A stretch of DNA of 30,475 bases, taken from positions 1-30,475 of the forward strand of contig NEEC01000378.1 of the NCBI GenBank assembly GCA_002189035.1, read 5' to 3'. This DNA comes from Utricularia gibba (lineage: Eukaryota; Streptophyta; Magnoliopsida; Lamiales; Lentibulariaceae). The notes beneath the pieces are model-generated. The model was not told the DNA's origin. It did no database searches and was given only the letters and a program-made list of their open reading frames with translations. This document shows, in pieces, positions 1 to 30,475 of the stretch; within the stretch, counting starts at the first letter, position 1; every line of letters starts with the position of its first letter. A program made the position numbers and the translations under genes.

Positions 1-3000
1 CCAAAGACCGCCTTCTCAAGTATAAAGTAAGTTGTTGAAAAAATCATGTGGGGTGCACGTGATATCGCAATTTAAACAAATGCAACATTGTATTCATCGA
101 TTTGCATCCTTTTGTCCTCATGAGCCATAAAGAATCGCGGGCCGGACCAAGTTCCTAGCGAGACTGGCCGCCACAAAACGAGAAGCTGTTCCTTGAAAAA
201 CCATGTAGGCAACACCGAAAACCGAACGTTAATAAATACATCACTTTCTTTGCCGGGCTACAACTTACTTTGGGCCAAGGCCTAAGCTGATCTTTTTCCG
301 GTTCCAAGTGCACCCAAAGACCGCCTTCTCAAGTATAAAGTAAGTTGTTGAAAAAATCATGTGGGGTGCACGTGACATCATAATTTAAACAAATGGATCA
401 TTTTTTTTTAATCGATTTGCATCCAGTTGACCTCATGAGCCATACAGAATCGGGGTCAAGGACCAAGTTCCCAGCGAGACTGGCCGCCACAAAACGAGAA
501 GCGGTTCCTTGAAAAACCATGTAGGCAGCCCCCGAAAACCGAACGATAATAAATACATCACTTTATTTGCCGGACTACAACTAACTCTCGGGCAAGCCAA
601 ACCTTACCTTTGTCCCGTTCCAGGTGCACCCAAGACCGCCTGCTCAAGTATAAAGTAAGTTGTTGAAAAAATCATGTGGGGTGCACGTGATATCGCAATT
701 TAAACAAATGCAACATTGTATTCATCGATTTGCATCCTTTTGTCCTCATGAGCCATAAAGAATCGCGGGCCCGGACCAAGTTCCTAGCGAGACTGGCCGC
801 CACAAAACGAGAAGCTGTTCCTTGAAAAACCATGTAGGCAACACCGAAAACCGAACGTTAATAAATACATCACTTTCTTTGCCGGGCTACAACTTACTTT
901 GGGCCAAGGCCTAAGCTGATCTTTTCCGGTTCCAAGTGCACCCAAAGACCGCCTCTCAAGTATAAAGTAAGTTGTTGAAAAAATCATGTGGGGTGCACGT
1001 GACATCATAATTTAAACAAATGGATCATTTTTTTAATCGATTTGCATCCAGTTGACCTCATGAGCCATACAGAATCGGGGTCAAGGACCAAGTTCCCAGC
1101 GAGACTGGCCGCCACAAAACGAGAAGCGGTTCCTTGAAAAACCATGTAGGCAGCCCCCGAAAACCGAACGATAATAAATACATCACTTTATTTGCCGGAC
1201 TACAACTAACTCTCGGTGCAAGCCAAACCTTACCTTTGTCCCGTTCCAGGTGCACCAAAGACCGCCTGCTCAAGTATAAAGTAAGTTGTTGAAAAAATCA
1301 TGTGGGTGCACGTGATATCGCAATTTAAACAAATGCAACATTTGTTTCATCGATTTGCATCCTTTTGTCCTCATGAGCCATAAAGAATCGCGGGCCGGAC
1401 CAAGTTCCTAGCGAGACTGGCCGCCACAAAACGAGAAGCTGTTCCTTGAAAAACCATGTAGGCAACACCGAAAACCGAACGTTAATAAATACATCACTTT
1501 CTTTGCCGGGCTACAACTTACTTTGGGCCAAGGCCTAAGCTGATCTTTTTCCGGTTCCAAGTGCACCCAAAGACCGCCTTCTCAAGTATAAAGTAAGTTG
1601 TTGAAAAAATCATGTGGGGTGCACGTGACATCATAATTTAAACAAATGGATCATTTTTTTTAATCGATTTGCATCCAGTTGACCTCATGAGCCATACAGA
1701 ATCGGGGTCAAGGACCAAGTTCCCAGCGAGACTGGCCGCCACAAAACGAGAAGCGGTTCCTTGAAAAACCATGTAGGCAGCCCCCGAAAACCGAACGATA
1801 ATAAATACATCACTTTTTTGCCGGACTACAACTTACTTCGGGCAAGCCAAACCTACCTTTTTCCGTTCCAAGTGCCCCCAAAGACCGCCTCTCAAGTATA
1901 AAGTAAGTTGTTGAAAAAATCATGTGGGGTGCACGTGATATCGCAATTTAAACAAATGATCGATTTGCATCCTTTGTCCTCATGAGCCATAAAGAATCGC
2001 GGGCCCGGACCAAGTTCCTAGCGAGACTGGCCGCCACAAAACGAGAAGCTGTTCCTTGAAAAACCATGTAGGCACACCGAAAACCGAACGTTAATAAATA
2101 CATCACTTTCTTTGCCGGGCTACAACTTACTTTGGGCCAAGGCCTAAGCTGATCTTTTCCGGTTCCAAGTGCACCCAAAGACCGCCTTCTCAAGTATAAA
2201 GTAAGTTTTTGAAAAAATCATGTGGGGTGCACGTGACATCATAATTTAAACAAATGGATCATTTTTTTTAATCGATTTGCATCCAGTTGACCTCATGAGC
2301 CATACAGAATCGGGGTCAAGGACCAAGTTCCCAGCGAGACTGGCCGCACAAACGAGAAGCGGTTCCTCGAAAAACCATGTAGGCAGCCCCGAAAACCGAA
2401 CGATAATAAATACATCACTTTATTTGCCGGACTACAACTAACTCTCGTGCAAGCCAAACCTTACCTTTGTCCCGTTCCAGGTGCACCCAAAGACCGCCTC
2501 TCAAGTATAAAGTAAGTTGTTGAAAAAATCATGTGGGGTGCACGTGATATCGCAATTTAAACAAATGCAACATTGTATTCATCGATTTGCATCCTTTTGT
2601 CCTCATGAGCCATAAAGAATCGCGGGCCCGACCAAGTTCCTAGCGAGACTGGCCGCCACAAAACGAGAAGCTGTTCCTTGAAAAACCATGTAGGCAACAC
2701 CGAAAACCGAACGTTAATAAATACATCACTTTCTTTGCCGGGCTACAACTTACTTTGGGCCAAGGCCTAAGCTGATCTTTTTCCGGTTCCAAGTGCACCC
2801 AAAGACCGCCTTCTCAAGTATAAAGTAAGTTGTTGAAAAAATCATGTGGGGTGCACGTGACATCATAATTTAAACAAATGGATCATTTTTTTAATCGATT
2901 TGCATCCAGTTGACCTCATGAGCCATACAGAATCGGGGTCAAGGACCAAGTTCCCAGCGAGACTGGCCGCCACAAAACGAGAAGCGGTTCCTTGAAAAAC

Positions 3001-4990
3001 CATGTAGGCAGCCCCCGAAAACCGAACGATAATAAATACATCACTTTATTTGCCGGACTACAACTAACTCTCGGTGCAAGCCAAACCTTACCTTTGTTCC
3101 GTTCCAGGTGCACCCAAAGACCGCCTGCTCAAGTATAAAGTAAGTTGTTGAAAAAATCATGTGGGGTGCACGTGATATCGCAATTTAAACAAATGCAACA
3201 TTGTATTCATCGATTTGCATCCTTTTGTCCTCATGAGCCATAAAGAATCGCGGGCCCGGACCAAGTTCCTAGCGAGACTGGCCGCCCAAAACGAGAAGCT
3301 GTTCCTTGAAAAACCATGTAGGCAACACCGAAAACCGAACGTTAATAAATACATCACTTTCTTTGCCGGGCTACAACTTACTTTGGGCCAAGGCCTAAGC
3401 TGATCTTTTTCCGGTTCCAAGTGCACCCAAAGACCGCCTTCTCAAGTATAAAGTAAGTTGTTGAAAAAATCATGTGGGGTGCACGTGACATCATAATTTA
3501 AACAAATGGATCATTTTTTTTAATCGATTTGCATCCAGTTGACCTCATGAGCCATACAGAATCGGGGTCAAGGACCAAGTTCCCAGCGAGACTGGCCGCC
3601 ACAAAACGAGAAGCGGTTCCTTGAAAAACCATGTAGGCAGCCCCCGAAAACCGAACGATAATAAATACATCACTTTATTTGCCGGACTACAACTAACTCT
3701 CGGTGCAAGCCAAACCTTACCTTTGTCCGTTCCAGGTGCACCCAAAGACCGCCTGCTCAAGTATAAAGTAAGTTGTTGAAAAAATCATGTGGGGTGCACG
3801 TGATATCGCAATTTAAACAAATGCAACATTGTATTCATCGATTTGCATCCTTTTGTCCTCATGAGCCATAAAGAATCGCGGGCCCGGACCAAGTTCCTAG
3901 CGAGACTGGCCGCCACAAAACGAAGCTGTTCCTTGAAAAACCATGTAGGCAACACCGAAAACCGAACGTTAATAAATACATCACTTTCTTTGCCGGGCTA
4001 CAACTTACTTTGGGCCAAGGCCTAAGCTGATCTTTTTCCGGTTCCAAGTGCACCCAAAGACCGCCTTCTCAAGTATAAAGTAAGTTGTTGAAAAAATCAT
4101 GTGGGGTGCACGTGACATCATAATTTAAACAAATGGATCATTTTTTTTAATCGATTTGCATCCAGTTGACCTCATGAGCCATACAGAATCGGGGTCAAGG
4201 ACCAAGTTCCCAGCGAGACTGGCCGCCACAAAACGAGAAGCGGTTCCTTGAAAAACCATGTAGGCAGCCCCCGAAAACCGAACGATAATAAATACATCAC
4301 TTTATTTGCCGGACTACAACTAACTCTCGTGCAAGCCAAACCTTACCTTTGTCCCGTTCCAGGTGCACCCAAAGACCGCCTGCTCAAGTATAAAGTAAGT
4401 TGTTGAAAAAATCATGTGGGGTGCACGTGATATCGCAATTTAAACAAATGCAACATTGTATTCATCGATTTGCATCCTTTTGTCCTCATGAGCCATAAAG
4501 AATCGCGGGCCCGGACCAAGTTCCTAGCGAGACTGGCCGCCACAAAACGAGAAGCTGTTCCTTGAAAAACCATGTAGGCAACACGAAAACCGAACGTTAA
4601 TAAATACATCACTTTCTTTGCCGGGCTACAACTTACTTTGGGCCAAGGCCTAAGCTGATCTTTTTCCGGTTCCAAGTGCACCCAAAGACCGCCTTCTCAA
4701 GTATAAAGTAAGTTGTTGAAAAAATCATGTGGGGTGCACGTGACATCATAATTTAAACAAATGGATCATTTTTTTTAATCGATTTGCATCCAGTTGACCT
4801 CATGAGCCATACAGAATCGGGGTCAAGGACCAAGTTCCCAGCGAGACTGGCCGCCAAAACGAGAAGCGGTTCCTTGAAAAACCATGTAGGCAGCCCCCGA
4901 AAACCGAACGATAATAAATACATCACTTATTTGCCGGACTACAACTTACTTGGGCAAGCCTAAGCTGACCTTTTTCCGTTCCAAGTGCCC
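1..4990 (+). repeat. Array block 1: regular A-B alternation, monomers 1-16
   Basis: Anchors are at 71, 384, 699, 1011, 1324, 1637, 1947, 2245, 2556, 2869, 3184, 3497, 3812, 4124, 4439 and 4752; odd-numbered monomers are A and even-numbered are B. Most copies are canonical with one to three small deletions. The B copy anchored at 1637 has an intermediate tail, TTACTTCGGGCAAGCC. The one at 4752 has a fully A-like tail, TTACTTGGGCAAGCCTAAGC. The A copy anchored at 1947 is short. Confidence 0.93.
1878..2174 (+). repeat. Short type A monomer (297 bp)
   Basis: After the anchor this copy reads AAATGATCGATTT, where A normally has 13 further bases between AAATG and ATCGATTT. Single bases are also missing in the head (CCTCTC), in CCTTTGTCC and in GGCACACCG. 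It follows a B monomer with an intermediate tail and CCCCCAAAG at the junction. The lost block is exactly the stretch where A and B cannot be aligned to each other. Confidence 0.9.
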
Positions 4991-5299
4991 CCAAAGACCG
5001 CCTCCTCAAGTATAAAGTAAGTTGTTAAAAAAATCATGTGGGGTGCACGTGATATCGCAATTTAAACAAATGCATTTTTTTTTAATCGATTTGCATCCTT
5101 TTGTCCTCATGAGCCATAAAGAATCGCGGCCCGGACCAAGTTCCTAGCGAGACTGGCCGCCACAAACGAGAAGCTGTTCCTTGAAAAACCATGTAGGCAA
5201 CACCGAAAACCGAACGTTAATAAATACATCACTTTCTTTGCCGGGCTACAACTTACTTTGGGCCAAGGCCTAAGCTGATTTTTCCGGTTCCAAGTGCAC
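4991..5299 (+). repeat. A monomer with a B-type T-tract
   Basis: The bases before the anchor are A-type (GATATCGCAA) and the downstream part is A-type (CCTTTTGTCC, CATAAAG, AACGTT). Between them stands a B-like T-tract followed by AATCG in place of the A block ending ATTCATCG. The head reads CTCCTCAAG and GTTAAAAAAATC, unlike normal A or B. A near twin lies at 21075-21389. Confidence 0.85.
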
Positions 5300-5915
5300 C
5301 CAAAGACCGCCTCTCAGTATAAAGTAAGTTGTTGAAAAAATCATGTGGGGTGCACGTGACATCATAATTTAAACAAATGATCATTTTTTTTAATCGATTT
5401 GCATCCAGTTGACCTCATGAGCCATACAGAATCGGGGTCAAGGACCAAGTTCCCAGCGAGACTGGCCGCCAAAACGAGAAGCGGTTCCTTGAAAAACCAT
5501 GTAGGCAGCCCCCGAAAACCGAACGATAATAAATACATCACTTTATTTGCCGGACTACAACTACTGCAAGCCAAACCTTACCTTTGTCCCGTTCCAGGTG
5601 CACCCAAAGACCGCCTGCTCAAGTATAAAGTAAGTTGTTGAAAAAATCATGTGGGGTGCACGTGATATCGCAATTTAAACAAATGCAACATTGTATTCAT
5701 CGATTTGCATCCTTTTGTCCTCATGAGCCATAAAGAATCGCGGGCCCGGACCAAGTTCCTAGCGAGACTGGCCGCCACAAAACGAGAAGCTGTTCCTTGA
5801 AAAACCATGTAGGCAACACCGAAAACCGAACGTTAATAAATACATCACTTTCTTTGCCGGGCTACAACTTACTTTGGGCCAAGGCCTAAGCTGATCTTTT
5901 TCCGGTTCCAAGTGC

Positions 5916-6221
5916 CCAAAGACCGCCTTCTCAAGTATAAAGTAAGTTGTTGAAAAAATCATGTGGGGTGCACGTGACATCATAATTTAAACAAATGATC
6001 ATTTTTTTTAATCGATTTGCATCCAGTTGACCTCATGAGCCATACAGAATCGGGGTCAAGGACCAAGTTCCCAGCGAGACTGGCCGCCACAAAACGAGAA
6101 GCGTTCCTTGAAAAACCATGTAGGCAGCCCCCGAAAACCGAACGATAATAAATACATCACTTTTTGCCGGCTACAACTTACTTTGGGCCAAGCCTAAGCT
6201 ATCTTTTTCCGGTTCCAAGTG
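5916..6221 (+). repeat. Chimaeric monomer: B body, A tail (alternation slip)
   Basis: This copy is B through ACGATAATAAA (near 6145) and A from GGCTACAACTTACTTTGGG (near 6169). The switch must lie in the shared AATACATCACTTT stretch. It is followed by a second B-headed monomer (6222-6520), so the order is A, B/A, B, A. An unequal exchange between an A and a B unit out of register would leave this arrangement. Confidence 0.85.
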
Positions 6222-6520
6222 CAAAGACCGCCTTCTCAAGTATAAAGTAAGTTGTTAAAAAATCATGTGGGGTGCACGTGACATCATAATTTAAACAAAT
6301 GATCATTTTTTTTAATCGATTTGCATCCAGTTGACCTCATGAGCCATACAGAATCGGGGTCAAGGACCAAGTTCCCAGCGAGACTGGCCGCCACAAACGA
6401 GAAGCGGTTCCTGAAAAACCATGTAGGCACCCCGAAAACCGAACGATAATAAATACATCACTTTATTTGCCGGACTACAACTAAGCAAGCCAAACCTTAC
6501 CTTTTCCCGTTCCAGTGCAC
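6222..6520 (+). repeat. Type B monomer following a B-headed chimaera
   Basis: This has all B markers (GACATCATAA, CCAGTTGACC, CATACAG, ACGATA), but its tail is worn to CTAAGCAAGCCAAACC and its junction shortened to CAAAGACC. GGCACCCCG replaces GGCAGCCCCCG. It is the second B in a row, the only direct B-B neighbour pair besides the one around 8064-8303. Confidence 0.9.
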
Positions 6521-8063
6521 CCAAAGACCGCCTCTCAAGTATAAAGTAAGTTGTTGAAAAAATCATGTGGGGTGCACGTGATATCGCAATTTAAACAAAT
6601 GCAACATTGTTTCATCGATTTGCATCCTTTTGTCCTCATGAGCCATAAAGAATCGCGGGCCCGGACCAAGTTCCAGCGAGACTGGCCGCCACAAAACGAG
6701 AAGCTGTTCCTTGAAAAACCATGTAGGCAACACCGAAAACCGAACGTTAATAAATACATCACTTTCTTTGCCGGCTACAACTTACTTTGGGCCAAGGCCT
6801 AAGCTGATCTTTTTCCGGTTCCAAGTGCACCCAAAGACCGCCTTCTCAAGTATAAAGTAAGTTGTTGAAAAAATCATGTGGGGTGCACGTGACATCATAA
6901 TTTAAACAAATGGATCATTTTTTTTAATCGATTTGCATCCAGTTGACCTCATGAGCCATACAGAATCGGGGTCAAGGACCAAGTTCCCAGCGAGACTGGC
7001 CGCCACAAAACGAGAAGCGGTTCCTTGAAAAACCATGTAGGCAGCCCCCGAAAACCGAACGATAATAAATACATCACTTTATTTGCCGGACTACAACTAC
7101 AAGCCTAAGCTACCTTTTTCCGTTCCAAGTGCCCCCCAAGACCGCCTCCTCAAGTATAAAGTAAGTTGTTAAAAAATCATGTGGGTGCACGTGATATCGC
7201 AATTTAAACAAATGCATTTTTTCATCGATTTGCATCCTTTTGTCCTCATGAGCCATAAAGAATCGCGGGCCCGGACCAAGTTCCTAGCGAGACTGGCCGC
7301 CACAAAACGAGAAGCTGTTCCTTGAAAAACCATGTAGGCAACACCGAAAACCGAACGTTAATAAATACATCACTTTCTTTGCCGGGCTACAACTTACTTT
7401 GGGCCAAGGCCTAAGCTGATCTTTTTCCGGTTCCAAGTGCCCCCCAAGACCGCCTCTCAGTATAAAGTAAGTTGTTAAAAAAATCATGTGGGGTGCACGT
7501 GACATCGTAATTTAAACAAATGATCATTTTTTTTAATCGATTTGCATCCAGTTGACCTCATGAGCCATACAGAATCGGGGTCAAGGACCAAGTTCCCAGC
7601 GAGACTGGCCGCCACAAACGAGAAGCGGTTCCTTGAAAAACCATGTAGGCAGCCCCCGAAAACCGAACGATAATAAATACATCACTTTATTTGCCGGACT
7701 ACAACTAACTCTCGGTGCAAGCCAAACCTTACCTTTGTCCCGTTCCAGGTGCACCCAAAGACCGCCTGCTCAAGTATAAAGTAAGTTGTTGAAAAAATCA
7801 TGTGGGGTGCACGTGATATCGCAATTTAAACAAATGCAACATTGTATTCATCGATTTGCATCCTTTTGTCCTCATGAGCCATAAAGAATCGCGGGCCCGG
7901 ACCAAGTTCCTAGCGAGACTGGCCGCCACAAACGAGAAGCTGTTCCTTGAAAAACCATGTAGGCAACAAAACCGAACGTTAATAAATACATCACTTTCTT
8001 TGCCGGGCTACAACTTACTTTGGGCCAAGGCCTAAGCTGATCTTTTTCCGGTTCCAAGTGCAC

Positions 8064-8302
8064 CCAAAGACCGTCAAATCAGTGCACGATTTAAACAAAT
8101 GAATCGATTTGCATCCTTGACCTCATGAGCCATACAGAATCCGACCAAGTTCCCAGCGAGACTGGCCGCCACAAAACGAGAAGTTCCTTGAAAAACCATG
8201 TAGGCACGAAAACCGAACGTTAATAAATACATCACTTTTTTGCCGGCTACAACTTACTTTGGGCCAAGGCCTAAGCTGACCTTTTTCCGGTTCCAAGTGC
8301 CC
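8064..8302 (+). repeat. Heavily deleted chimaeric monomer (239 bp)
   Basis: About 75 bp shorter than normal. The head that normally holds TATAAAGTAAG and the A6 tract is reduced to a few bases: ACCGTCAAATCAGTGCACG leads straight to ATTTAAAC. The T-tract block, the G-rich block before CCAAG and the GCGG before TTCC are also lost. What remains is B-like at CATACAG and TTCCCAGCG and A-like at GTTAATAAA and the tail. Nearly all lost bases are ones where A and B disagree or which border such positions. Confidence 0.9.
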
Positions 8303-11300
8303 CCAAGACCGCCTCTCAGTATAAAGTAGTTGTTAAAAAAATCATGTGGGGTGCACGTGACATCATAATTTAAACAAATGATCATTTTTTTAATCGATTT
8401 GCATCCAGTTGACCTCATGAGCCATACAGAATCGGGGTCAAGGACCAAGTTCCCAGCGAGACTGGCCGCCACAAAACGAGAAGCGGTTCCTTGAAAAACC
8501 ATGTAGGCAGCCCCCGAAAACCGAACGATAATAAATACATCACTTTATTTGCCGGACTACAACTAACTCTCGTGCAAGCCAAACCTTACCTTTGTCCCGT
8601 TCCAGGTGCACCCAAAGACCGCCTGCTCAAGTATAAAGTAAGTTGTTGAAAAAATCATGTGGGGTGCACGTGATATCGCAATTTAACAAATGCAACATTG
8701 TATTCATCGATTTGCATCCTTTTGTCCTCATGAGCCATAAAGAATCGCGGGCCCGGACCAAGTTCCTAGCGAGACTGGCCGCCACAAAACGAGAAGCTGT
8801 TCCTTGAAAAACCATGTAGGCAACACCGAAAACCGAACGTTAATAAATACATCACTTTCTTTGCCGGGCTACAACTTACTTTGGGCCAAGGCCTAAGCTG
8901 ATCTTTTTCCGGTTCCAAGTGCACCCAAAGACCGCCTTCTCAAGTATAAAGTAAGTTGTTGAAAAAATCATGTGGGGTGCACGTGACATCATAATTTAAA
9001 CAAATGGATCATTTTTTTTAATCGATTTGCATCCAGTTGACCTCATGAGCCATACAGAATCGGGGTCAAGGACCAAGTTCCCAGCGAGACTGGCCGCCAC
9101 AAAACGAGAAGCGGTTCCTTGAAAAACCATGTAGGCAGCCCCCGAAAACCGAACGATAATAAATACATCACTTTATTTGCCGGACTACAACTAACTCGGT
9201 GCAAGCCAAACCTTACCTTTTTCCGGTGCACCCAAAGACCGCCTGCTCAAGTATAAAGTAAGTTTTGAAAAAATCATGTGGGGTGCACGTGATCGCAATT
9301 TAAACAAATGCAACATTTTTTTTCATCGATTTGCATCCTTTTGTCCTCATGAGCCATAAAGAATCGCGGGCCCGGACCAAGTTCCTAGCGAGACTGGCCG
9401 CCACAAAACGAGAAGCTGTTCCTTGAAAAACCATGTAGGCAACACCGAAAACCGAACGTTAATAAATACATCACTTTCTTTGCCGGGCTACAACTTACTT
9501 TGGGCCAAGGCCTAAGCTGATCTTTTTCCGGTTCCAAGTGCCCCCCAAGACCGCCTCTCAAGTATAAAGTAAGTTGTTAAAAAATCATGTGGGGTGCACG
9601 TGACATCATAATTTAAACAAATGATCATTTTTTTTAATCGATTTGCATCCAGTTGACCTCATGAGCCATACAGAATCGGGTCAAGGACCAAGTTCCCAGC
9701 GAGACTGGCCGCCACAAAACGAGAAGCGGTTCCTTGAAAAACCATGTAGGCAGCCCCCGAAAACCGAACGATAATAAATACATCACTTTATTTGCCGGAC
9801 TACAACTAACTCTGCAAGCCAAACCTTACCTTTGTCCGTTCCAGGTGCACCCAAAGACCGCCTCCTCAAGTATAAAGTAAGTTGTTGAAAAAATCATGTG
9901 GGGTGCACGTGATATCGCAATTTAAACAAATGCAACATTTTATTTCATCGATTTGCATCCTTTTGTCCTCATGAGCCATAAAGAATCGCGGGCCCGGACC
10001 AAGTTCCTAGCGAGACTGGCCGCCACAAAACGAGAAGCTGTTCCTTGAAAAACCATGTAGGCAACACCGAAAACCGAACGTTAATAAATACATCACTTTC
10101 TTTGCCGGGCTACAACTTACTTTGGGCCAAGGCCTAAGCTGATCTTTTTCCGGTTCCAAGTGCACCCAAAGACCGCCTTCTCAAGTATAAAGTAAGTTGT
10201 TGAAAAAATCATGTGGGGTGCACGTGACATCATAATTTAAACAAATGGATCATTTTTTTTAATCGATTTGCATCCAGTTGACCTCATGAGCCATACAGAA
10301 TCGGGGTCAAGGACCAAGTTCCCAGCGAGACTGGCCGCCACAAAACGAGAAGCCTTGAAAAACCATGTAGGCAGCCCCCGAAAACCGAACGATAATAAAT
10401 ACATCACTTTATTTGCCGGACTACAACTAACTCTTGCAAGCCAAACCTTACCTTTGTCCCGTTCCAGTGCCCCAAAGACCGCCTGCTCAAGTATAAAGTA
10501 AGTTGTTGAAAAAATCATGTGGGGTGCACGTGATATCGCATTTAAACAAATGCAACATTGTATTCATCGATTTGCATCCTTTTGTCCTCATGAGCCATAA
10601 AGAATCGCCCGGACCAAGTTCCTAGCGAGACTGGCCGCCACAAAACGAGAAGCTGTTCCTTGAAAAACCATGTAGGCAACACCGAAAACCGAACGTTAAT
10701 AAATACATCACTTTCTTTGCCGGGCTACAACTTACTTTGGGCCAAGGCCTAAGCTGATCTTTTTCCGGTTCCAAGTGCACCCAAAGACCGCCTTCTCAAG
10801 TATAAAGTAAGTTGTTGAAAAAATCATGTGGGGTGCACGTGACATCATAATTTAAACAAATGGATCATTTTTTTTAATCGATTTGCATCCAGTTGACCTC
10901 ATGAGCCATACAGAATCGGGGTCAAGGACCAAGTTCCCAGCGAGACTGGCCGCCACAAAACGAGAAGCGGTTCCTTGAAAAACCATGTAGGCAGCCCCCG
11001 AAAACCGAACGATAATAAATACATCACTTTATTTGCCGGACTACAACTAACTCTCGTGCAAGCCAAACCTTACCTTTGTCCCGTTCCAGGTGCACCCAAA
11101 GACCGCCTGCTCAAGTATAAAGTAAGTTGTTGAAAAAATCATGTGGGGTGCACGTGATATCGCAATTTAAACAAATGCAACATTGTATTCATCGATTTGC
11201 ATCCTTTTGTCCTCATGAGCCATAAAGAATCGCGGGCCCGGACCAAGTTCCTAGCGAGACTGGCCGCCACAAAACGAGAAGCTGTTCCTTGAAAAACCAT

Positions 11301-12365: not shown

Positions 12366-12394
12366 GTAAGTTGTTGAAAAAATCATGTGGGGTG

Positions 12395-18882: not shown

Positions 18883-21074
18883 CCAAAGACCGCCTTCTCA
18901 AGTATAAAGTAAGTTGTTGAAAAAATCATGTGGGTGCACGTGACATCATAATTTAAACAAATGGATCATTTTTTTTAATCGATTTGCATCCAGTTGACCT
19001 CATGAGCCATACAGAATCGGGGTCAAGGACCAAGTTCCCAGCGAGACTGGCCGCCACAAAACGAGAAGCGGTTCCTTGAAAAACCATGTAGGCAGCCCCC
19101 GAAAACCGAACGATAATAAATACATCACTTTATTTGCCGGACTACAACTAACTCTCGGTGCAAGCCAAACCTTACCTTTGTCCCGTTCCAGGTGCACCCA
19201 AAGACCGCCTGCTCAAGTATAAAGTAAGTTGTTGAAAAAAATCATGTGGGGTGCACGTGATATCGCAATTTAAACAAATGCAACATTGTATTCATCGATT
19301 TGCATCCTTTTGTCCTCATGAGCCATAAAGAATCGCGGGCCCGGACCAAGTTCCTAGCGAGACTGGCCGCCACAAAACGAGAAGCTGTTCCAAAAACCAT
19401 GTAGGCAACACGAAAACCGAACGTTAATAAATACATCACTTTCTTTGCCGGGCTACAACTTACTTTGGGCCAAGGCCTAAGCTGATCTTTTTCCGGTTCC
19501 AAGTGCACCCAAAGACCGCCTTCTCAAGTATAAAGTAAGTTGTTGAAAAAATCATGTGGGTGCACGTGACATCATAATTTAAACAAATGGATCATTTTTT
19601 TTAATCGATTTGCATCCAGTTGACCTCATGAGCCATACAGAATCGGGGTCAAGGACCAAGTTCCCAGCGAGACTGGCCGCCACAAAACGAGAAGCGGTTC
19701 CTTGAAAAACCATGTAGGCAGCCCCCGAAAACCGAACGATAATAAATACATCACTTTATTTGCCGGACTACAACTAACTCTCGGTGCAAGCCAAACCTTA
19801 CCTTTGTCCCGTTCCAGGTGCACCCAAAGACCGCCTGCTCAAGTATAAAGTAAGTTGTTGAAAAAATCATGTGGGGTGCACGTGATATCGCAATTTAAAC
19901 AAATGCAACATTGTATTCATCGATTTGCATCCTTTTGTCCTCATGAGCCATAAAGAATCGCGGGCCCGGACCAAGTTCCTAGCGAGACTGGCCGCCACAA
20001 AACGAGAAGCTGTTCCTTGAAAAACCATGTAGGCAACACCGAAAACCGAACGTTAATAAATACATCACTTTCTTTGCCGGGCTACAACTTACTTTGGGCC
20101 AAGGCCTAAGCTGATCTTTTTCCGGTTCCAAGTGCCCAAAGACCGCCTTCTCAAGTATAAAGTAAGTTGTTGAAAAAATCATGTGGGGTGCACGTGACAT
20201 CATAATTTAAACAAATGATCATTTTTTTTAATCGATTTGCATCCAGTTGACCTCATGAGCCATACAGAATCGGGTCAAGGACCAAGTTCCCAGCGAGACT
20301 GGCCGCCACAAAACGAGAAGCGGTTCCTTGAAAAACCATGTAGGCAGCCCCCGAAAACCGAACGATAATAAATACATCACTTTATTTGCCGGACTACAAC
20401 TAACTCTCGTGCAAGCCAAACCTTACCTTTGTCCCGTTCCAGGTGCACCCAAAGACCGCCTTCTCAAGTATAAAGTAAGTTGTTGAAAAAATCATGTGGG
20501 GTGCACGTGATATCGCAATTTAAACAAATGCAACATTGTATTCATCGATTTGCATCCTTTTGTCCTCATGAGCCATAAAGAATCGCGGGCCCGGACCAAG
20601 TTCCTAGCGAGACTGGCCGCCACAAAACGAGAAGCTGTTCCTTGAAAAACCATGTAGGCAACACCGAAAACCGAACGTTAATAAATACATCACTTTCTTT
20701 GCCGGGCTACAACTTACTTTGGGCCAAGGCCTAAGCTGATCTTTTTCCGGTTCCAAGTGCACCCAAAGACCGCCTTCTCAAGTATAAAGTAAGTTGTTGA
20801 AAAAATCATGTGGGGTGCACGTGACATCATAATTTAAACAAATGGATCATTTTTTTTAATCGATTTGCATCCAGTTGACCTCATGAGCCATACAGAATCG
20901 GGGTCAAGGACCAAGTTCCCAGCGAGACTGGCCGCCACAAAACGAGAAGCGGTTCCTTGAAAAACCATGTAGGCAGCCCCCGAAAACCGAACGATAATAA
21001 ATACATCACTTTATTTGCCGGACTACAACTTACTTGGGCAAGCCTAACCTACCTTTTTCCGTTCCAAGTGCCCC

Positions 21075-21389
21075 CCAAAGACCGCCTCCTCAAGTATAAA
21101 GTAATGTTGTTAAAAAAATCATGTGGGGTGCACGTGATATCGCAATTTAAACAAATGACATTTTTTTTTAATCGATTTGCATCCTTTTGTCCTCATGAGC
21201 CATAAAGAATCGCGGGCCCGGACCAAGTTCCTAGCGAGACTGGCCGCCACAAAACGAGAAGCTGTTCCTTGAAAAACCATGTAGGCAACACCGAAAACCG
21301 AACGTTAATAAATACATCACTTTCTTTGCCGGGCTACAACTTACTTTGGGCCAAGGCCTAAGCTGATCTTTTTCCGGTTCCAAGTGCAC
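21075..21389 (+). repeat. A monomer with a B-type T-tract (second example)
   Basis: GATATCGCAA is followed by the anchor, GACA, a long T-tract and AATCG, then A markers. The head has GTAATGTTGTTAAAA, one T more than usual. It follows a B monomer with tail TTACTTGGGCAAGCC, just as at 4991-5299. Confidence 0.85.
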
Positions 21390-22182
21390 CCAAAGACCGC
21401 CTTCTCAAGTATAAAGTAAGTTGTTGAAAAAATCATGTGGGGTGCACGTGACATCATAATTTAAACAAATGGATCATTTTTTTTAATCGATTTGCATCCA
21501 GTTGACCTCATGAGCCATACAGAATCGGGGTCAAGGACCAAGTTCCCAGCGAGACTGGCCGCCACAAAACGAGAAGCGGTTCCTTGAAAAACCATGTAGG
21601 CAGCCCCCGAAAACCGAACGATAATAAATACATCACTTTATTTGCCGGACTACAACTTACTTTGGGCCAAGCCTAAGCTACCTTTTCCGGTTCCAAGTGC
21701 CCCCCAAGACCGCCTGCTCAAGTATAAAGTAAGTTGTTTAAAAAAATCATGTGGGGTGCACGTGATATCGCAATTTAAACAAATGCACATTGTTTCATCG
21801 ATTTGCATCCTTTTGTCCTCATGAGCCATAAAGAATCGCGGGCCCGGACCAAGTTCCTAGCGAGACTGGCCGCCACAAAACGAGAAGCTGTTCCTTGAAA
21901 AACCATGTAGGCAACACCGAAAACCGAACGTTAATAAATACATCACTTTCTTTGCCGGGCTACAACTTACTTTGGGCCAAGGCCTAAGCTGATCTTTTTC
22001 CGGTTCCAAGTGCCCCCAAAGACCGCCTCCTCAAGTATAAAGTAGTTGTTAAAAAAATCATGTGGGGTGCACGTGACATCATAATTTAAACAAATGATCA
22101 TTTTTTTTAATCGATTTGCATCCAGTTGACCTCATGAGCCATACAGAATCGGGTCAAGGACCAAGTTCCCAGCGAGACTGGC

Positions 22183-22286
22183 CGCCACAAAACGAGAAGC
22201 GGTTCCTTGAAAAACCATGTAGGCAGCCCCCGAAAACCGAACGATAATAAATACATCACTTTATTTGCCGGACTACAACTAACTCT
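22183..22286 (+). repeat. Direct duplication, copy 1 (104 bp)
   Basis: Covers the GCCACAAAACGAG to CTCTCG part of type B. The join to copy 2 lies at CTCTCG/CCACAAAA, where only CG or CGCC is shared between the two broken sequences. A short-homology or replication-slip joint, or a misassembly join, would look alike. Confidence 0.93.
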
Positions 22287-22390
22287 CGCCACAAAACGAG
22301 AAGCGGTTCCTTGAAAAACCATGTAGGCAGCCCCGAAAACCGAACGATAATAAATACATCACTTTATTTGCCGGACTACAACTTACTTTG
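22287..22390 (+). repeat. Direct duplication, copy 2 (~104 bp)
   Basis: Repeats copy 1 closely, with AGCCCCG for AGCCCCCG, until GGACTACAACT. It then departs into TTACTTTGGGC, the A-like tail. The two copies therefore end in different tail types, so this is not a simple polymerase stutter of one template. Confidence 0.9.
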
Positions 22391-24288
22391 GGCAAGGCCA
22401 AGCTGATTTTCCGGTTCCAGTGCCCCAAGACCGCCTCCTCAAGTATAAAGTAAGTTTTAAAAAAAATCATGTGGGGTGCACGTGATATCGTAATTTAAAC
22501 AAATGCAACATAATCGATTTGCATCCTTTGACCTCATGAGCCATAAAGAATCGCGGGCCCGGACCAAGTTCCTAGCGAGACTGGCGCCACAAAACGAGAA
22601 GCTGTTCCTTGAAAAACCATGTAGGCAACACCGAAAACCGAACGTTAATAAATACATCACTTTCTTTGCCGGGCTACAACTTACTTTGGGCCAAGGCCTA
22701 AGCTGATCTTTTTCCCGGTTCCAAGTGCCCCAAAGACCGCCTTCTCAAGTATAAAGTAAGTTGTTGAAAAAATCATGTGGGGTGCACGTGACATCATAAT
22801 TTAAACAAATGGATCATTTTTTTTAATCGATTTGCATCCAGTTGACCTCATGAGCCATACAGAATCGGGGTCAAGGACCAAGTTCCCAGCGAGACTGGCC
22901 GCCAAAACGAGAAGCGGTTCCTTGAAAAACCATGTAGGCAGCCCCGAAAACCGAACGATAATAAATACATCACTTTATTTGCCGGACTACAACTTACTTT
23001 GGGCAAGGCCTAAGCTGACCTTTTTCCGTCCAAGTGCCCCCAAGACCGCCTCCTCATGTATAAAGTATGTTCTTAAAAAAAATCATGTGGGGTGCACGTG
23101 ATATCGTAATTTAAACAAATGCAACATTTTTTTCATCGATTTGCATCCTTTGACCTCATGAGCCATAAAGAATCGCGGGCCCGGACCAAGTTCCTAGCGA
23201 GACTGGCCGCCACAAAACGAGAAGCTGTTCCTTGAAAAACCATGTAGGCAACACCGAAAACCGAACGTTAATAAATACATCACTTTCTTTGCCGGGCTAC
23301 AACTTACTTTGGGCCAAGGCCTAAGCTGACCTTTTTCCGGTTCCAAGTGCCCCCAAAGACCGCCTCCTCATGTATAAAGTAAGTTGTTAAAAAAATCATG
23401 TGGGGTGCACGTGACATCGTAATTTAAACAAATGCATCATTTTTTTAATCGATTTGCATCCAGTTGACCTCATGAGCCATACAGAATCGGGGTCAAGGAC
23501 CAAGTTCCCAGCGAGACTGGCCGCCACAAAAACGAGAAGCGGTTCCTTGAAAAACCATGTAGGCAGCCCCCGAAAACCGAACGATAATAAATACATCACT
23601 TTATTTGCCGGACTACAACTACTCTTGCAAGCCAAACCTTACCTTTGTCCGTTCCAGGTGCACCCAAGACCGCCTGCTCAAGTATAAAGTAAGTTGTTGA
23701 AAAAATCATGTGGGGTGCACGTGATATCGCAATTTAAACAAATGCAACATTGTATTCATCGATTTGCATCCTTTGACCTCATGAGCCATAAAGAATCGCG
23801 GGCCCGGACCAAGTTCCTAGCGAGACTGGCCGCCACAAAACGAGAAGCTGTTCCTTGAAAAACCATGTAGGCAACACCGAAAACCGAACGTTAATAAATA
23901 CATCACTTTCTTTGCCGGGCTACAACTTACTTTGGGCCAAGGCCTAAGCTGACCTTTTTCCGGTTCCAAGTGCCCCAAGACCGCCTCCTCATGTATAAAG
24001 TATGTTGTTAAAAAAATCATGTGGGGTGCACGTGACATCGTAATTTAAACAAATGCATCATTTTTTTTAATCGATTTGCATCCAGTTGACCTCATGAGCC
24101 ATACAGAATCGGGGTCAGGACCAAGTTCCCAGCGAGACTGGCCGCCACAAAACGAGAAGCGGTTCCTTGAAAAACCATGTAGGCAGCCCCCGAAAACCGA
24201 ACGATAATAAATACATCACTTTATTTGCCGGACTACAACTTACTTTGGGCCAAGGCCTAAGCTGACCTTTTTCCGGTCCAAGTGCCCC

Positions 24289-24595
24289 CCAAGACCGCCT
24301 CCTCATGTATAAAGTATGTTGTTAAAAAAAATCATGTGGGGTGCACGTGAGATCGTAATTTAAACAAATGTATCATTTTTTTTAATCGATTTGCATCCAT
24401 TTGACCTCATGAGCCATAAAGAATCGCGGGCCCGGACCAAGTTCCTAGCGAGACTGGCCGCCACAAAACGAGAAGCTGTTCCTTGAAAAACCATGTAGGC
24501 AACCCGAAAACCGAACGTTAATAAATACATCACTTTTTGCCGGCTACAACTTACTTTGGGCAAGGCCAAATGATCTTTTTCCGTTCCAAGTGCAC
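24289..24595 (+). repeat. Variant A monomer with GAGATCG, followed directly by another A
   Basis: Reads GAGATCGTAA before the anchor, GTATCA and a T-tract after it, and CCATTTGACC, then A markers (CATAAAG, CGGGCCCGG, AACGTT) with worn ACCCG and CTTTTTGCCGGC. The same sub-type recurs at anchors 28088 and 29966, and partly at 25903. The next unit is also A, so the alternation slips here without a visible chimaera. Confidence 0.88.
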
Positions 24596-24897
24596 CCAAA
24601 GACCGCCTCTCAAGTATAAAGTAAGTTGTTGAAAAAATCATGTGGGGTGCACGTGATATCGCAATTTAAACAAATGCATCATTTATTCATCGATTTGCAT
24701 CCTTTTGACCTCATGAGCCATAAGAATCGGGGGGACCAAGTTCCAGCGAGACTGGCCGCCACAAAACGAGAAGCTGTTCCTTGAAAAACCATGTAGGCAA
24801 CCCGAAAACCGAACGTTAATAATACATCACTTTTTGCCGGGCTACAACTTACTTTGGGCCAAGGCCTAAGCTGATCTTTTTCCGGTTCCAAGTGCAC
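24596..24897 (+). repeat. Second consecutive A monomer (302 bp, worn)
   Basis: A markers are GATATCGCAA, AGCTGTT, AACGTTAAT and TTACTTTGGGCC. It has CCTTTTGACC and GGGGGGACC between A and B forms, CATAAG short by one A, TTCCAGCG lacking the base that separates TTCCTAGCG from TTCCCAGCG, and AATAATACATC short by one A in the AATAAA motif. Confidence 0.88.
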
Positions 24898-27085
24898 CCA
24901 AAGACCGCCTTCTCAAGTATAAAGTAAGTTGTTGAAAAAAATCATGTGGGGTGCACGTGACATCATAATTTAAACAAATGGATCATTTTTTTTAATCGAT
25001 TTGCATCCAGTTGACCTCATGAGCCATACAGAATCGGGGTCGGGACCAAGTTCCCAGCGAGACTGGCCGCCACAAAACGAGAAGCGGTTCCTTGAAAAAA
25101 CCATGTAGGCAGCCCAAAACCGAACGATAATAAATACATCACTTTATTTGCCGGACTACAACTTACTTTGGGCCAAGGCCTAAGCTGACCTTTTTCCGGT
25201 CCAAGTGCCCCCCAAGACCGCCTCCTCATGTATAAAGTATGTTGTTAAAAAAATCATGTGGGTGCACGTGACATCGTAATTTAAACAAATGCATCATTTT
25301 TTTTAATCGATTTGCATCCTTTGACCTCATGAGCCATAAAGAATCGGGGCCCGGACCAAGTTCCTAGCGAGACTGGCCGCCACAAAACGAGAAGCTGTTC
25401 CTTGAAAAACCATGTAGGCAACACCGAAAACCGAACGTTAATAAATACATCACTTTCTTTGCCGGGCTACAACTTACTTTGGGCCAAGGCCTAAGCTGAC
25501 TTTTTCCGGTTCCAAGTGCACCCAAAGACCGCCTTCTCAAGTATAAAGTAAGTTGTTGAAAAAATCATGTGGGGTGCACGTGACATCATAATTTAAACAA
25601 ATGGATCATTTTTTTTAATCGATTTGCATCCAGTTGACCTCATGAGCCATACAGAATCGGGGTCCGGACCAAGTTCCCAGCGAGACTGGCCGCCACAAAA
25701 CGAGAAGCGGTTCCTTGAAAAACCATGTAGGCAGCCCCCGAAAACCGAACGATAATAAATACATCACTTTATTTGCCGGACTACAACTTACTTTGGCCAA
25801 GGCCTAAGCTGACCTTTTTCCGGTTCCAAGTGCACCCAAGACCGCCTCCTCATGTATAAAGTATGTTGTTAAAAAATCATGTGGGGTGCACGTGAATCGT
25901 AATTTAAACAAATGCATCATTTTTTTTAATCGATTTGCATCCATTTGACCTCATGAGCCATAAAGAATCGCGGGCCCGGACCAAGTTCCTAGCGAGACTG
26001 GCCGCCACAAAACGAGAAGCTGTTCCTTGAAAAACCATGTAGGCAACACCGAAAACCGAACGTTAATAAATATATCACTTTCTTTGCCGGGCTACAACTT
26101 ACTTTGGGCCAAGGCCTAAGCTGACCTTTTTCCGGTTCCAAGTGCCCCCAAGACCGCCTCCTCATGTATAAAGTATGTTGTTAAAAAAATCATGTGGGGT
26201 GCACGTGACATCGTAATTTAAACAAATGCATCATTTTTTTTAATCGATTTGCATCCAGTTGACCTCATGAGCCATACAGAATCGGGGTCAAGGACCAAGT
26301 TCCCAGCGAGACTGGCCGCCACAAAACGAGAAGCGGTTCCTTGAAAAACCATGTAGGCAGCCCCCGAAAACCGAACGATAATAAATACATCACTTTATTT
26401 GCCGGACTACAACTACTCTCGGGCAAGCCAAACCTTACTTTTTCCCGTTCCAGGTGCACCCCAAAGACCGCCTGCTCAAGTATAAAGTAAGTTGTTGAAA
26501 AAATCATGTGGGGTGCACGTGATATCGCAATTTAAACAAATGCAACATTGTATTCATCGATTTGCATCCTTTACCTCATGAGCCATAAAGAATCGCGGGC
26601 CCGGACCAAGTTCCTAGCGAGACTGGCCGCCACAAAACGAGAAGCTGTTCCTTGAAAAACCATGTAGGCAACACCGAAAACCGAACGTTAATAAATACAT
26701 CACTTTCTTTGCCGGGCTACAACTTACTTTGGGCCAAGGCCTAAGCTGACCTTTTTCCGGTTCCAAGTGCCCCCCAAGACCGCCTCCTCATGTATAAAGT
26801 ATGTTGTTAAAAAAATCATGTGGGTGCACGTGACATCGTAATTTAAACAAATGGATCATTTTTTTTAATCGATTTGCATCCAGTTGACCTCATGAGCCAT
26901 ACAGAATCGGGGTCAGGACCAAGTTCCCAGCGAGACTGGCCGCCACAAAACGAGAAGCGGTTCCTTGAAAAACCATGTAGGCAGCCCCGAAAACCGAACG
27001 ATAATAAATACATCACTTTATTTGCCGGACTACAACTTACTTTGGGCCAAGGCCTAAGCTGACCTTTTTCCGGTCCAAGTGCCCC

Positions 27086-27388
27086 CCAAGACCGCCTCCT
27101 CATGTATAAAGTATGTTTTAAAAAATCATGTGGGGTGCACGTGATATCGTAATTTAAACAAATGATCATTTTTTAATCGATTTGCATCCTTTGACCTCAT
27201 GAGCCATAAAGAATCGGGGCGGACCAAGTTCCTAGCGAGACTGGCCGCCACAAAAACGAGAAGCTGTTCCTTGAAAAACCATGTAGGCAGCCCCCGAAAA
27301 CCGAACGATAATAAATACATCACTTTTTGCCGGACTACAACTAACTCTCGGCAAGCCAAACCTTACTTTTGTCCCGTTCCAGGTGCAC
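27086..27388 (+). repeat. Chimaeric monomer: A head, B tail (alternation slip)
   Basis: This is A-type through AGCTGTTCC (near 27262) and B-type from GCAGCCCCCG and ACGATA onward (near 27288), with a TAACTCTCGGCAAGCC tail. The switch lies in the shared TTCCTTGAAAAACCATGT block. The next unit is a normal A. It is the reciprocal form of the chimaera at 5916-6221. Confidence 0.88.
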
Positions 27389-30209
27389 CCAAAGACCGCC
27401 TTCTCAAGTATAAAGTAAGTTGTTGAAAAAATCATGTGGGGTGCACGTGATATCGCAATTTAAACAAATGCACATTGTATTCATCGATTTGCATCCTTTT
27501 GTCCTCATGAGCCATAAAGAATCGCGGGCCCGGACCAAGTTCCTAGCGAGACTGGCCGCCACAAAACGAGAAGCTGTTCCTTGAAAAACCATGTAGGCAA
27601 CACCGAAAACCGAACGTTAATAAATACATCACTTTCTTTGCCGGGCTACAACTTACTTTGGGCCAAGGCCTAAGCTGATCTTTTTCCGGTTCCAAGTGCA
27701 CCCAAAGACCGCCTTCTCAAGTATAAAGTAAGTTGTTGAAAAAAATCATGTGGGGTGCACGTGACATCATAATTTAAAACAAATGGATCATTTTTTTAAT
27801 CGATTTGCATCCAGTTGACCTCATGAGCCATACAGAATCGGGGTCGAGGACCAAGTTCCCAGCGAGACTGGCCGCCATAAAACGAGAGCGGTTCCTTGAA
27901 AAACCATGTAGGCAGCCCCCGAAAACCGAACGATAATAAATACATCACTTTATTTGCCGGACTACAACTTACTTTGGGCCAAGGCCTAAGCTGACCTTTT
28001 TCCGGTCCAAGTGCCCCCCAAGACCGCCTCCTCATGTATAAAGTAAGTTCTTAAAAAAAATCATGTGGGGTGCACGTGAGATCGTAATTTAAACAAATGT
28101 ATCATTTTTTTTAATCGATTTGCATCCATTTGACCTCATGAGCCATAAAGAATCGCGGGCCCGGACCAAGTTCCTAGCGAGACTGGCTGCCACAAAACGA
28201 GAAGCTGTTCCTTGAAAAACCATGTAGGCAACACCGAAAACCGAACGTTAATAAATACATCACTTTCTTTGCCGGGCTACAACTTACTTTGGGCCAAGGC
28301 CTAAGCTGATTTTTCCGGTTCCAAGTGCCCCAAGACCGCCTCCTCATGTATAAAGTATGTTGTTAAAAAAATCATGTGGGGTGCACGTGACATCGTAATT
28401 TAAACAAATGCATCATTTTTTTTAATCGATTTGCATCCAGTTGACCTCATGAGCCATACAGAATCGGGGTCAAGGACCAAGTTCCCAGCGAGACTGGCCG
28501 CACAAACGAGAAGCGGTTCCTTGAAAAACCATGTAGGCAGCCCCCGAAAACCGAACGATAATAAATACATCACTTTATTTTCCGGACTACAACTAACTCT
28601 CGGTGCAAGCCAAACCTTACCTTTGTCCCGTTCCAGGTGCACCCAAAGACCGCCTGCTCAAGTATAAAGTAAGTTGTTGAAAAAATCATGTGGGGTGCAC
28701 GTGATATCGCAATTTAAACAAATGCAACATTGTATTCATCGATTTGCATCCTTTGACCTCATGAGCCATAAAGAATCGCGGGCCCGGACCAAGTTCCTAG
28801 CGAGACTGGCCGCCACAAAACGAGAAGCTGTTCCTTGAAAAACATGTAGGCAACACCGAAAACCGAACGTTAATAAATACATCACTTTCTTTGCCGGGCT
28901 ACAACTTACTTTGGGCCAAGGCCTAAGCTGACCTTTTTCCGGTTCCAAGTGCACCCAAAGACCGCCTTCTCAAGTATAAAGTAAGTTGTTGAAAAAATCA
29001 TGTGGGGTGCACGTGACATCGTAATTTAAACAAATGGATCATTTTTTTTAATCGATTTGCATCCAGTTGACCTCATGAGCCATACAGAATCGGGGTCAAG
29101 GACCAAGTTCCCAGCGAGACTGGCCGCCACAAAACGAGAAGCGGTTCCTTGAAAAAACCATGTAGGCAGCCCCCGAAAACCGAACGATAATAAATACATC
29201 ACTTTATTTGCCGGACTACAACTAACTCTCGATGCAAGCCAAACCTTACCTTTGTCCCGTTCCAGGTGCACCCAAAGACCGCCTGCTCAAGTATAAAGTA
29301 AGTTGTTGAAAAAATCATGTGGGGTGCACGTGATATCGCAATTTAAACAAATGCAACATTGTATTCATCGATTTGCATCCTTTTGTCCTCATGAGCCATA
29401 AAGAATCGCGGGCCGGACCAAGTTCCTAGCGAGACTGGCCGCCAAAAACGAGAAGCTGTTCCTTGAAAAACCATGTAGGCAACACCGAAAACCGAACGTT
29501 AATAAATACATCACTTTCTTTGCCGGGCTACAACTTACTTTGGGCCAAGGCCTAAGCTGATCTTTTTCCGGTTCCAAGTGCACCCAAAGACCGCCTTCTC
29601 AAGTATAAAGTAAGTTGTTGAAAAAATCATGTGGGGTGCACGTGACATCATAATTTAAACAAATGGTCATTTTTTTTAATCGATTTGCATCCAGTTGACC
29701 TCATGAGCCATACAGAATCGGGGTCAGGGACCAAGTTCCCAGCGAGACTGGCCGCCATAAAACGAGAAGCGGTTTCCTTGAAAAACCATGTAGGCAGCCC
29801 CGAAAACCGAACGATAATAAATACATCACTTTATTTGCCGGACTACAACTTACTTTGGCCAAGGCCTAAGCTGACTTTTTCCGGTTCCAAGTGCCCCCAA
29901 GACCGCCTCCTCATGTATAAAGTAAGTTGTTAAAAAAATCATGTGGGGTGCACGTGAGATCGTAATTTAAACAAATGTATCATTTTTTTTAATCGATTTG
30001 CATCCTTTTGTCCTCATGAGCCATAAAAGAATCGCGGGCCCGGACCAAGTTCCTAGCGAGACTGGCCGCCACAAACGAGAAGCTGTTCCTTGAAAAACCA
30101 TGTAGGCAACACCGAAAACCGAACGTTAATAAAATACATCACTTTCTTTGCCGGGCTACAACTTACTTTGGGCCAAGGCCTAAGCTGACTTTTTCCGGTT
30201 CCAAGTGCC

Positions 30210-30475
30210 CCAAAGACCGCCTCTCAAGTATAAAGTAAGTTGTTGAAAAAAATCATGTGGGGTGCACGTGACATCGTAATTTAAACAAATGCATATTTTT
30301 TTTAATCGATTTGCATCCAGTTGACCTCATGAGCCATACAGAATCGGGGTCAAGGACCAAGTTCCCAGCGAGACTGGCCGCCACAAAAACGAGAAGCGGT
30401 TCCTTGAAAAACCATGTAGGCAGCCCGAAAACCGAACGATAATAAATACATCACTTTATTTGCCGGACTACAACT
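30210..30475 (+). repeat. Last B monomer, truncated by the window end
   Basis: B markers are present up to CCGGACTACAACT, where the window stops about 50 bp before the monomer would end. GACATCGTAA and GCATA with a T-tract mark it as the variant B common in this part. The array clearly continues past the window. Confidence 0.95.

What the first reader, a model, noticed from the sequence alone, without database searches (positions are those of the whole stretch)
1..30475. Hidden ~157-bp periodicity inside the ~314-bp monomer
The two halves of the A monomer align collinearly at offsets of 156-158 bp. In the first monomer: TTGAAAAA at 35 and 193, CATGT at 45 and 202, CAC at 56 and 213, CG-A at 66 and 223, TTAA at 72 and 229, AA-AAAT-CA-CA at 75 and 231, CCGG at 142 and 298, CCAAG at 147 and 304. 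B shows the same, with a slightly larger offset of about 160 and a better match in the T-rich block. This implies three nested levels, ~157, ~314 and ~628 bp, with the ~157 unit near the size of DNA in one nucleosome. The monomer would be an old fused dimer and the A-B unit a tetramer of the ancestral repeat.
Basis: partly seen in the sequence, partly recalled or inferred. Interest (0 to 1): 0.75.

Follow-up and report, generated by a model that had tools for sequence, protein, structure and literature searches.

The report
Satellite monomer is an ancient doubled unit
The 314-base unit of this plant tandem-repeat array is an old head-to-tail doubling of a roughly 157-base unit; this is a known way for satellite DNA to evolve, seen here with unusually clear nested ages in a very small plant genome.

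Summary
The window is one A/B satellite array (98 anchors; 94 of 97 intervals 270-350 bp; 47 A, 47 B). Offset 157 is the strongest sub-monomer autocorrelation. Half-to-half alignment gives 88 identities in 152 (A) and 153 (B) aligned columns; 0 of 2000 shuffles of either kind do as well.

Two diverged families of the same genome, C (67.5-70% to A/B) and D (~70%, inside a 2.33-kb composite), show the same doubling. Halves taken as consensus over families agree at 102 of 155 columns, z 11.9. Halves 1 and halves 2 separate on a tree (support 1.000), so the doubling predates the families. An unrelated 339-356-bp satellite of this genome shows no half period.

The 157-bp level looks fossil: exact searches with each half's core found 10 and 20 scattered places. 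No sequence sign of nucleosome phasing was found. A dimer-derived monomer is a known kind (New World monkey 343-bp repeat). The genome is probably Utricularia gibba (inference); the half-2 core has 13,056 copies.

The parts
1..30475 (+). A/B alternating satellite array filling the whole contig
   Evidence: 98 anchors; 94 of 97 intervals 270-350 bp, 47 A and 47 B; the window is G000:C478:1-30475
4..160 (+). Half 1 of the first A monomer (cut at 157 bases of the consensus)
   Evidence: aligns with 161-316; consensus 88 identities in 152 columns
161..316 (+). Half 2 of the first A monomer
   Evidence: as above
317..631 (+). First B monomer; halves approximately 317-474 and 475-631
   Evidence: interval m1; B halves 88 identities in 153 columns
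41..99 (+). Half-1 copy of the better conserved core (columns 41-100 of the half alignment; window coordinates counted by hand)
   Evidence: half-to-half identity is concentrated here; 23 of 2000 permutations as clustered
199..256 (+). Half-2 copy of the same core (window coordinates counted by hand)
22183..22387 (+). Local 103-bp tandem duplication inside a B monomer (a shift of -104, not half-register)
   Evidence: TRF row; jump at 22287
7758..8304 (+). Irregular stretch with intervals 400 and 147, left out of the monomer alignment
   Evidence: jumps at 8076 and 8207

Best explanation
The array is a plant satellite whose present unit of homogenisation (314 bp) arose when two adjacent copies of an older ~157-bp tandem repeat were fused into one copied unit. 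Inferred steps: (1) an ancestral ~157-bp tandem array; (2) two neighbouring variants were amplified together, so that the dimer became the copied unit; (3) once the halves had diverged, unequal exchange in the 157-bp register became rare and only the 314-bp register was homogenised; (4) the 314-bp monomer split into families (A/B, C, D); (5) within A/B, and separately within C, pairs of 314-bp monomers began to be copied together, giving ~628 bp. Shown here: homology of the halves, its presence in three diverged families, the split of halves 1 from halves 2, and the rarity of intact half-register intervals. Not shown: the recombination events themselves and any array of the ancestral unit. The array is most likely centromeric or pericentromeric DNA, judged only from where relatives lie in the assembly.
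For: Autocorrelation; half alignments against shuffles; nine half-1 to half-2 comparisons among A, B and C, each with 0 of 1000 shuffles as good, z 4.5 to 7.8; Dy 89 of 136 and Dz 93 of 139, 0 of 500 shuffles each, and FastTree split support 1.000; family-consensus halves aligned separately, 102 of 155, z 11.9, 0 of 1000, in-register score 137 against at most 102 in 128 rotations; single offset peak in A, B and C but not in three members of an unrelated 339-356-bp satellite; 314-bp register kept within 3 bp in 16 of 18 jumps of the window and 19 of 23 of six cleaner loci; one contig, C213, runs from telomere repeats to at least ~100 kb of family C, by sampled points.
Against: No ~157-bp array of the ancestral type was found, so the ancestor is reconstructed only from its descendants. 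Shared site-by-site conservation in the two halves is not significant (p .15), so the lattice need not be under selection. Order of the families within each half clade is poorly supported (0.16-0.79). Three runs of two half-length intervals do occur. The third D monomer, a 261-bp partial one, was not used in the half tests. Only 3 of 30 readable long-contig ends carry the satellite, so the centromeric placing is weak.
Confidence: 0.88

Rival explanations
1. Chance or compositional similarity: A-rich runs and short words recur, and the eye picks the ones near offset 157.
For: Four of the eight quoted motifs also occur elsewhere in the monomer; single-family identity is only about 57-58% with gaps; one of 18 shuffled monomers also happened to peak at 156.
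Against: 0 of 2000 base and 0 of 2000 dinucleotide shuffles; replicated in families C and D, with z 11.9 on combined halves; no such peak in another satellite of the same genome.
Confidence: 0.01
2. Halves alike by convergence or constraint rather than descent: both carry binding sites for the same protein or the same nucleosome-favouring layout at one-nucleosome spacing.
For: Identity is concentrated in columns 41-100 of the half alignment (23 of 2000 permutations as clustered).
Against: Collinear similarity over nearly the whole 157 bp with block offsets of 155-159; no ~10-bp WW periodicity; sites conserved in half 1 are not significantly those conserved in half 2. Constraint may add to descent but hardly replaces it.
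Confidence: 0.06
3. The 157-bp register is still in use, so that the array goes on exchanging half units.
For: 5 of the 10 half-1 places have spacing 157 or 161; half-2 cores give three runs of two half-length intervals (C175, C260, C483); one of 23 jumps in the cleaner loci is at 148.
Against: 10 and 20 exact places against 7459 anchors (up to 3 mismatches) and 13056 cores (up to 1 mismatch); many of the places lie in irregular stretches, 8 of the 20 in one contig, C260; in four irregular loci 6 of 98 jumps are 142 or more out of register, no more than a uniform spread would give (expectation is my arithmetic). No half-register jump in the window.
Confidence: 0.05

Closest known systems
New World monkey 343-bp centromere repeat (Melters et al. 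2013, PMC4053949; passages read)
   [quoted passage not shown] here no single-unit relative is in hand. Sequences unrelated as far as I know (not compared)
Dimeric human alpha satellite, suprachromosomal families 1-2 (PMC8122249; passages read)
   Same: Two alternating diverged monomers copied as one pair, like A-B here
   Different: Monomer there is the single 171-bp unit; here each alternating monomer is itself a doubled unit
Sorghum AB dimer and other higher-order repeats in 76 of 171 species (PMC4053949; passages read)
   Same: A and B variants of a plant satellite in strict pairs
   Different: One level of pairing described there; here a second, older one lies inside the monomer
VaccSat2 of Vaccinium (PMC7290377; passages read)
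   Same: Plant satellite monomer made of two related subunits (reported similarity 74-34%)
   Different: Monomer 201-240 bp with unequal subunits; here two nearly equal halves of ~157 bp
Gn7c161 of Genlisea nigrocaulis, 161 bp, (peri)centromere-associated (PMC4542322; passages read)
   Same: Nearly the half length, in the same plant family as the presumed host; its two primers together fit the satellite better than 294 of 300 shuffled pairs
   Different: Only primer letters were available; taken singly the primers are not significant (14 and 20 of 200 shuffles as good). Homology not established

Membership tests
Satellite with a dimer-derived monomer | Long head-to-tail array of one monomer | tested here: met
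   94 of 97 intervals 270-350 bp in the window
Satellite with a dimer-derived monomer | Two halves of the monomer homologous and collinear | tested here: met
Satellite with a dimer-derived monomer | Doubling older than the divergence of monomer families | tested here: met
   half-1/half-2 split support 1.000 over five monomers of three families
Satellite with a dimer-derived monomer | Single-unit array in a relative or elsewhere in the genome | tested here: inconclusive
   exact-core searches of this genome gave no such array, but diverged arrays would escape them; relatives not available
Two-monomer higher-order repeat | A and B alternate, and copies of one type are more alike than neighbours | tested here: met
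   within A .018, within B .030, between .1105; near-perfect alternation
Centromeric satellite | CENH3 enrichment | not testable with these tools
   no ChIP data
Centromeric satellite | Located at the centromere or inner end of chromosome arms | tested here: inconclusive
   3 of 30 readable ends of 16 long contigs carry it, one of these contigs (C213) with telomere repeats at its other end; centromere positions unknown
Nucleosome-phased satellite | ~10-bp AA/TT/TA/AT periodicity (rotational signal) | tested here: not met
   185, 493 and 443 of 500 shuffles reach the observed power in A, B and C
Nucleosome-phased satellite | Nucleosomes positioned at the repeat period (MNase) | not testable with these tools
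   no MNase data

The most novel reading that the evidence does not exclude
In this plant (probably Utricularia gibba) satellite-rich and satellite-free centromeres coexist. Some chromosomes carry large blocks of a dimer-derived 314-bp satellite in array- or chromosome-specific families (A/B, C, composite D), or of an unrelated 339-356-bp satellite, while the assembled chromosome-sized contigs lack the 314-bp one. The satellite doubled twice (157 to 314 to ~628 bp), the last step independently in two families, and the 157-bp lattice survives as the step of CENH3 nucleosomes.
Probability: 0.2. Interest if true: 0.7.

Novelty: new member of a known kind. Interest (0 to 1): 0.45.

Why it matters
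One satellite is seen at three nested ages in one small genome: a fossil ~157-bp unit, a 314-bp working unit, and ~628-bp pairs that arose separately in two families. That makes the step 'a dimer becomes the new monomer', proposed for New World monkeys, open to study inside a single genome. If the host is Utricularia gibba, whose putative centromeres in the assembled chromosomes were described as lacking satellite repeats (PMC8333044, passage), then the same assembly holds about 13,000 core copies of this family, roughly 4 Mb, outside contigs C1-C6, and the centromere picture deserves another look.

Tried and rejected
Segmentation by fuzzy regular expression lost most anchors (37 found, 4 of 36 intervals usable) and was replaced by a dynamic-programming scan. 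A first circular offset scan with unrestricted gapped alignment was wrong, since it realigned the sequence to itself at small shifts, and was replaced by a banded one. The jump analysis printed its results and then ended with an error while saving a file. A search for 5.8S rRNA in the genome found none. Rfam at gathering scores gave no match in the window and one ORF of at least 100 aa was listed, so I dropped a coding or RNA-gene reading. Constraint on sites shared by both halves: not significant. Rotational nucleosome signal: absent. An intron-split histone H3 on C402 was looked at as a possible CENH3 and reads to me as ordinary H3 (by eye). Rows dropped before counts: 3 of 97 window intervals (400, 147, 408), 1 of 31 family-C intervals (405), the partial D monomer, and the 534-bp repeat of C505, which was not put through the offset scan.
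Full report
1. What the window is. The window is the whole contig G000:C478 of a 100,091,633-base assembly in 516 contigs. It is one array of alternating A and B monomers. A dynamic-programming scan found 98 anchors; 94 of 97 intervals are 270-350 bp, and the other three (400, 147, 408) were left out of the alignment. Clustering gives 47 A and 47 B in near-perfect alternation; mean divergence is .018 within A.030 within B and .1105 between. There is no Rfam match at gathering scores and one ORF of at least 100 aa.

2. The observation. Four are unique to those two places in the first monomer; four also occur elsewhere in it, so I relied on whole-half tests. Autocorrelation at offset 157 is .337 against .253 +/- .016 over offsets 20-290. 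Half 1 against half 2 gives 88 identities in 152 columns (A) and in 153 (B), z 5.6 to 6.6, with 0 of 2000 base shuffles and 0 of 2000 dinucleotide shuffles as good. A banded scan over offsets has one strong peak, at 156, in A, B and C; 18 shuffled monomers peak at scattered offsets and lower scores, one by chance at 156. Block offsets run from 155 to 159, with B's mean at 158.2.

3. Independent replicates. Ends of long contigs of the same genome gave two diverged relatives. Family C is at the right end of C213: 30 monomers used of 31 intervals, consensus 314 bp, 67.5% to A without a gap and 70% to B. Family D is at the right end of C402, where about 860 bp of satellite recur every 2.33 kb; near-identical D copies lie on ten further contigs among the 40 best candidates scored. 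Their halves agree more than those of the window: C 94 of 152, Dy 89 of 136, Dz 93 of 139. All nine comparisons of a half 1 with a half 2 among A, B and C have 0 of 1000 shuffles as good. With one consensus per half over A, B, C, Dy and Dz, the two sets of halves aligned separately, 102 of 155 columns agree (z 11.9, 0 of 1000 shuffles); the in-register score is 137 and the best of 128 rotations 102, at the smallest rotation tried. FastTree separates the five halves 1 from the five halves 2 with support 1.000, though the order of families inside each clade is weakly supported. The doubling is real and older than the families.

4. A negative control. C244 (right end), C451 (right end) and C402 (left end) carry another tandem repeat, with consensus units of 344, 339 and 356 bp. 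The first two are about 75% alike and C402 is 66% like C244. None of their fetched stretches matches A/B, C or D at E 1e-4. None has a half-length peak above the range of shuffled monomers; C244's unit has a minor one at 170, z 1.8, and C402's best is at 152, z 2.3, not its half length. A half period is thus not general to satellites of this size here, nor an artefact of the method.

5. Is the 157-bp level alive? Exact pairs of the half-1 core at spacing 142-172 occur at 10 places, all in different contigs. Exact pairs of the half-2 core at spacing 140-170 occur at 20 places, 8 of them in C260; three runs of two such intervals occur (C175, C260, C483), none longer. For scale, the 33-base anchor with up to 3 mismatches occurs 7459 times and the half-2 core with up to 1 mismatch 13056 times. 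In a jump-allowing alignment 16 of 18 jumps in the window keep the 314-bp register within 3 bp; the others are +28 and -104. In L011, L012, L016, L018, L019 and L020, 19 of 23 keep it, three are 21-23, and one is 148. In L013, L014, L015 and L017, 98 jumps scatter, 6 of them 142 or more out of register. I read the 157-bp register as fossil. A more diverged 157-bp array could have escaped these exact searches.

6. The ~628-bp level. A and B differ by 11%; C is about 30% from both. C has its own two types (17 and 13 monomers; 7.3% between, 3.2-3.3% within; alternation imperfect). Pairing of 314-bp monomers therefore arose separately in the two families. 'Tetramer of the ancestral repeat' is right as a description of A-B, but the levels are not one common ladder.

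7. Nucleosome and constraint. There is no ~10-bp periodicity: 185, 493 and 443 of 500 shuffles reach the observed power in A, B and C. Half identity is concentrated in columns 41-100 of the half alignment (23 of 2000 permutations as clustered), but sites conserved between families in half 1 are not significantly those conserved in half 2 (Fisher p .15; 22 of 152 circular shifts as good). The nucleosome idea rests on length only.

8. Which organism, and where in the genome. The genome has TTTAGGG telomere arrays. A GTE-type bromodomain protein from C1 has as its best named hits plants that I know as Lamiales (Phlomoides, Sesamum, Buddleja, Orobanche, Striga); no hit in the list is named Utricularia, and a partial Genlisea aurea protein is at 54%. 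C451 is 6,822,880 bp, and a paper on Utricularia gibba names 'Unitig_8 (6.8 Mb)' and four putatively entire chromosomes (PMC8333044, passages). I conclude by inference that this is a U. gibba long-read assembly. Against it: a review gives 581 contigs for the published one (PMC5793159, passages), not 516. C3 and C4 have telomere repeats at both ends, C213 at its left end. I scanned 31 ends of 16 long contigs (not the left end of C1; those of C2 and C3 over 300 bases only); 30 are readable and 3 carry the 314-bp satellite: C213 right, C402 right, C414 left. On C213, family C is present at all six points sampled from 3.60 to 3.688 Mb and through most of the last 10 kb, and a more diverged form at 3.50 Mb; five points on C402 from 2.50 to 2.612 Mb have none. 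Exact copies of the anchor and of the half-2 core are listed from C7 on, none for C1-C6; only the first hundred places are listed, seemingly in contig order. At 313 bp per copy, 13056 cores make about 4.1 Mb, about 4% of the assembly (my arithmetic). PMC8333044 relates the low lncRNA density of the putative centromeres to absence of satellite repeats in these regions, citing the assembly paper. That paper is not held, so I cannot say what it reports about the satellite contigs.

9. What is known. Melters et al. 2013 (PMC4053949, passages) describe the same step in New World monkeys: a 343-bp repeat whose halves are weakly related and align to the 171-bp repeat of Old World monkeys and apes; they find higher-order repeats in 76 of 171 species. 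VaccSat2 is a plant satellite with two related subunits (PMC7290377, passages). Genlisea nigrocaulis has a 161-bp (peri)centromere-associated repeat (PMC4542322, passages); its primer pair fits the satellite slightly better than shuffled pairs (6 of 300 as good), while each primer alone does not stand out (14 and 20 of 200). That is a lead only. In the listings of my searches of the held library I saw no description of this satellite; most subscription papers are not held.

10. Verdict. The fused-dimer reading is right; the nucleosome reading is untested and has no sequence support here. As a kind of system it is known; as a satellite it looks like a new member with unusually clear nested ages.

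Noticed in passing
G000:C244:3345000-3405668, C451:6790000-6822880, C402:1-1200 (loci L059, L090-L092, L066, L093, L094, L044): A second tandem-repeat superfamily (344, 339 and 356 bp; C244 and C451 about 75% alike) at contig ends, C244 having telomere repeats at its other end; no match to the 314-bp family at E 1e-4.
   Followed up: partly
G000:C402:2619908-2629907 (L073): Family D: a 2.33-kb composite repeat holding about 2.7 monomers of the 314-bp satellite plus ~62-bp subrepeats; near-identical copies on ten other contigs.
   Followed up: partly
contigs listed: Contigs listed for the family-C core (C34, C37, C50, C52, C56, C64, C75, C92, C93, C110) do not overlap those listed for A/B, as if each family had its own arrays or chromosomes; all lists are cut short.
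   Followed up: no
window 22987-29843: Seven B-to-A switches at the same place (B position 256 to A 255), at 22987, 24233, 25156, 25781, 27030, 27962 and 29843: a recurrent chimeric monomer subtype in the last quarter of the array.
   Followed up: no
L013, L014, L015, L017; contigs C175, C260: Stretches where satellite fragments are densely rearranged (98 jumps in four loci); either old degraded array or poor long-read contig sequence.
   Followed up: no
G000:C505:1-1200 (L049): A 534-bp tandem repeat, two copies 99% alike, at the left end of a 3.45-Mb contig.
   Followed up: no
G000 whole assembly: No 5.8S rRNA match was found, odd for a plant nuclear assembly; rDNA may be missing, withheld, or missed by the tool's first look.
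   Followed up: no
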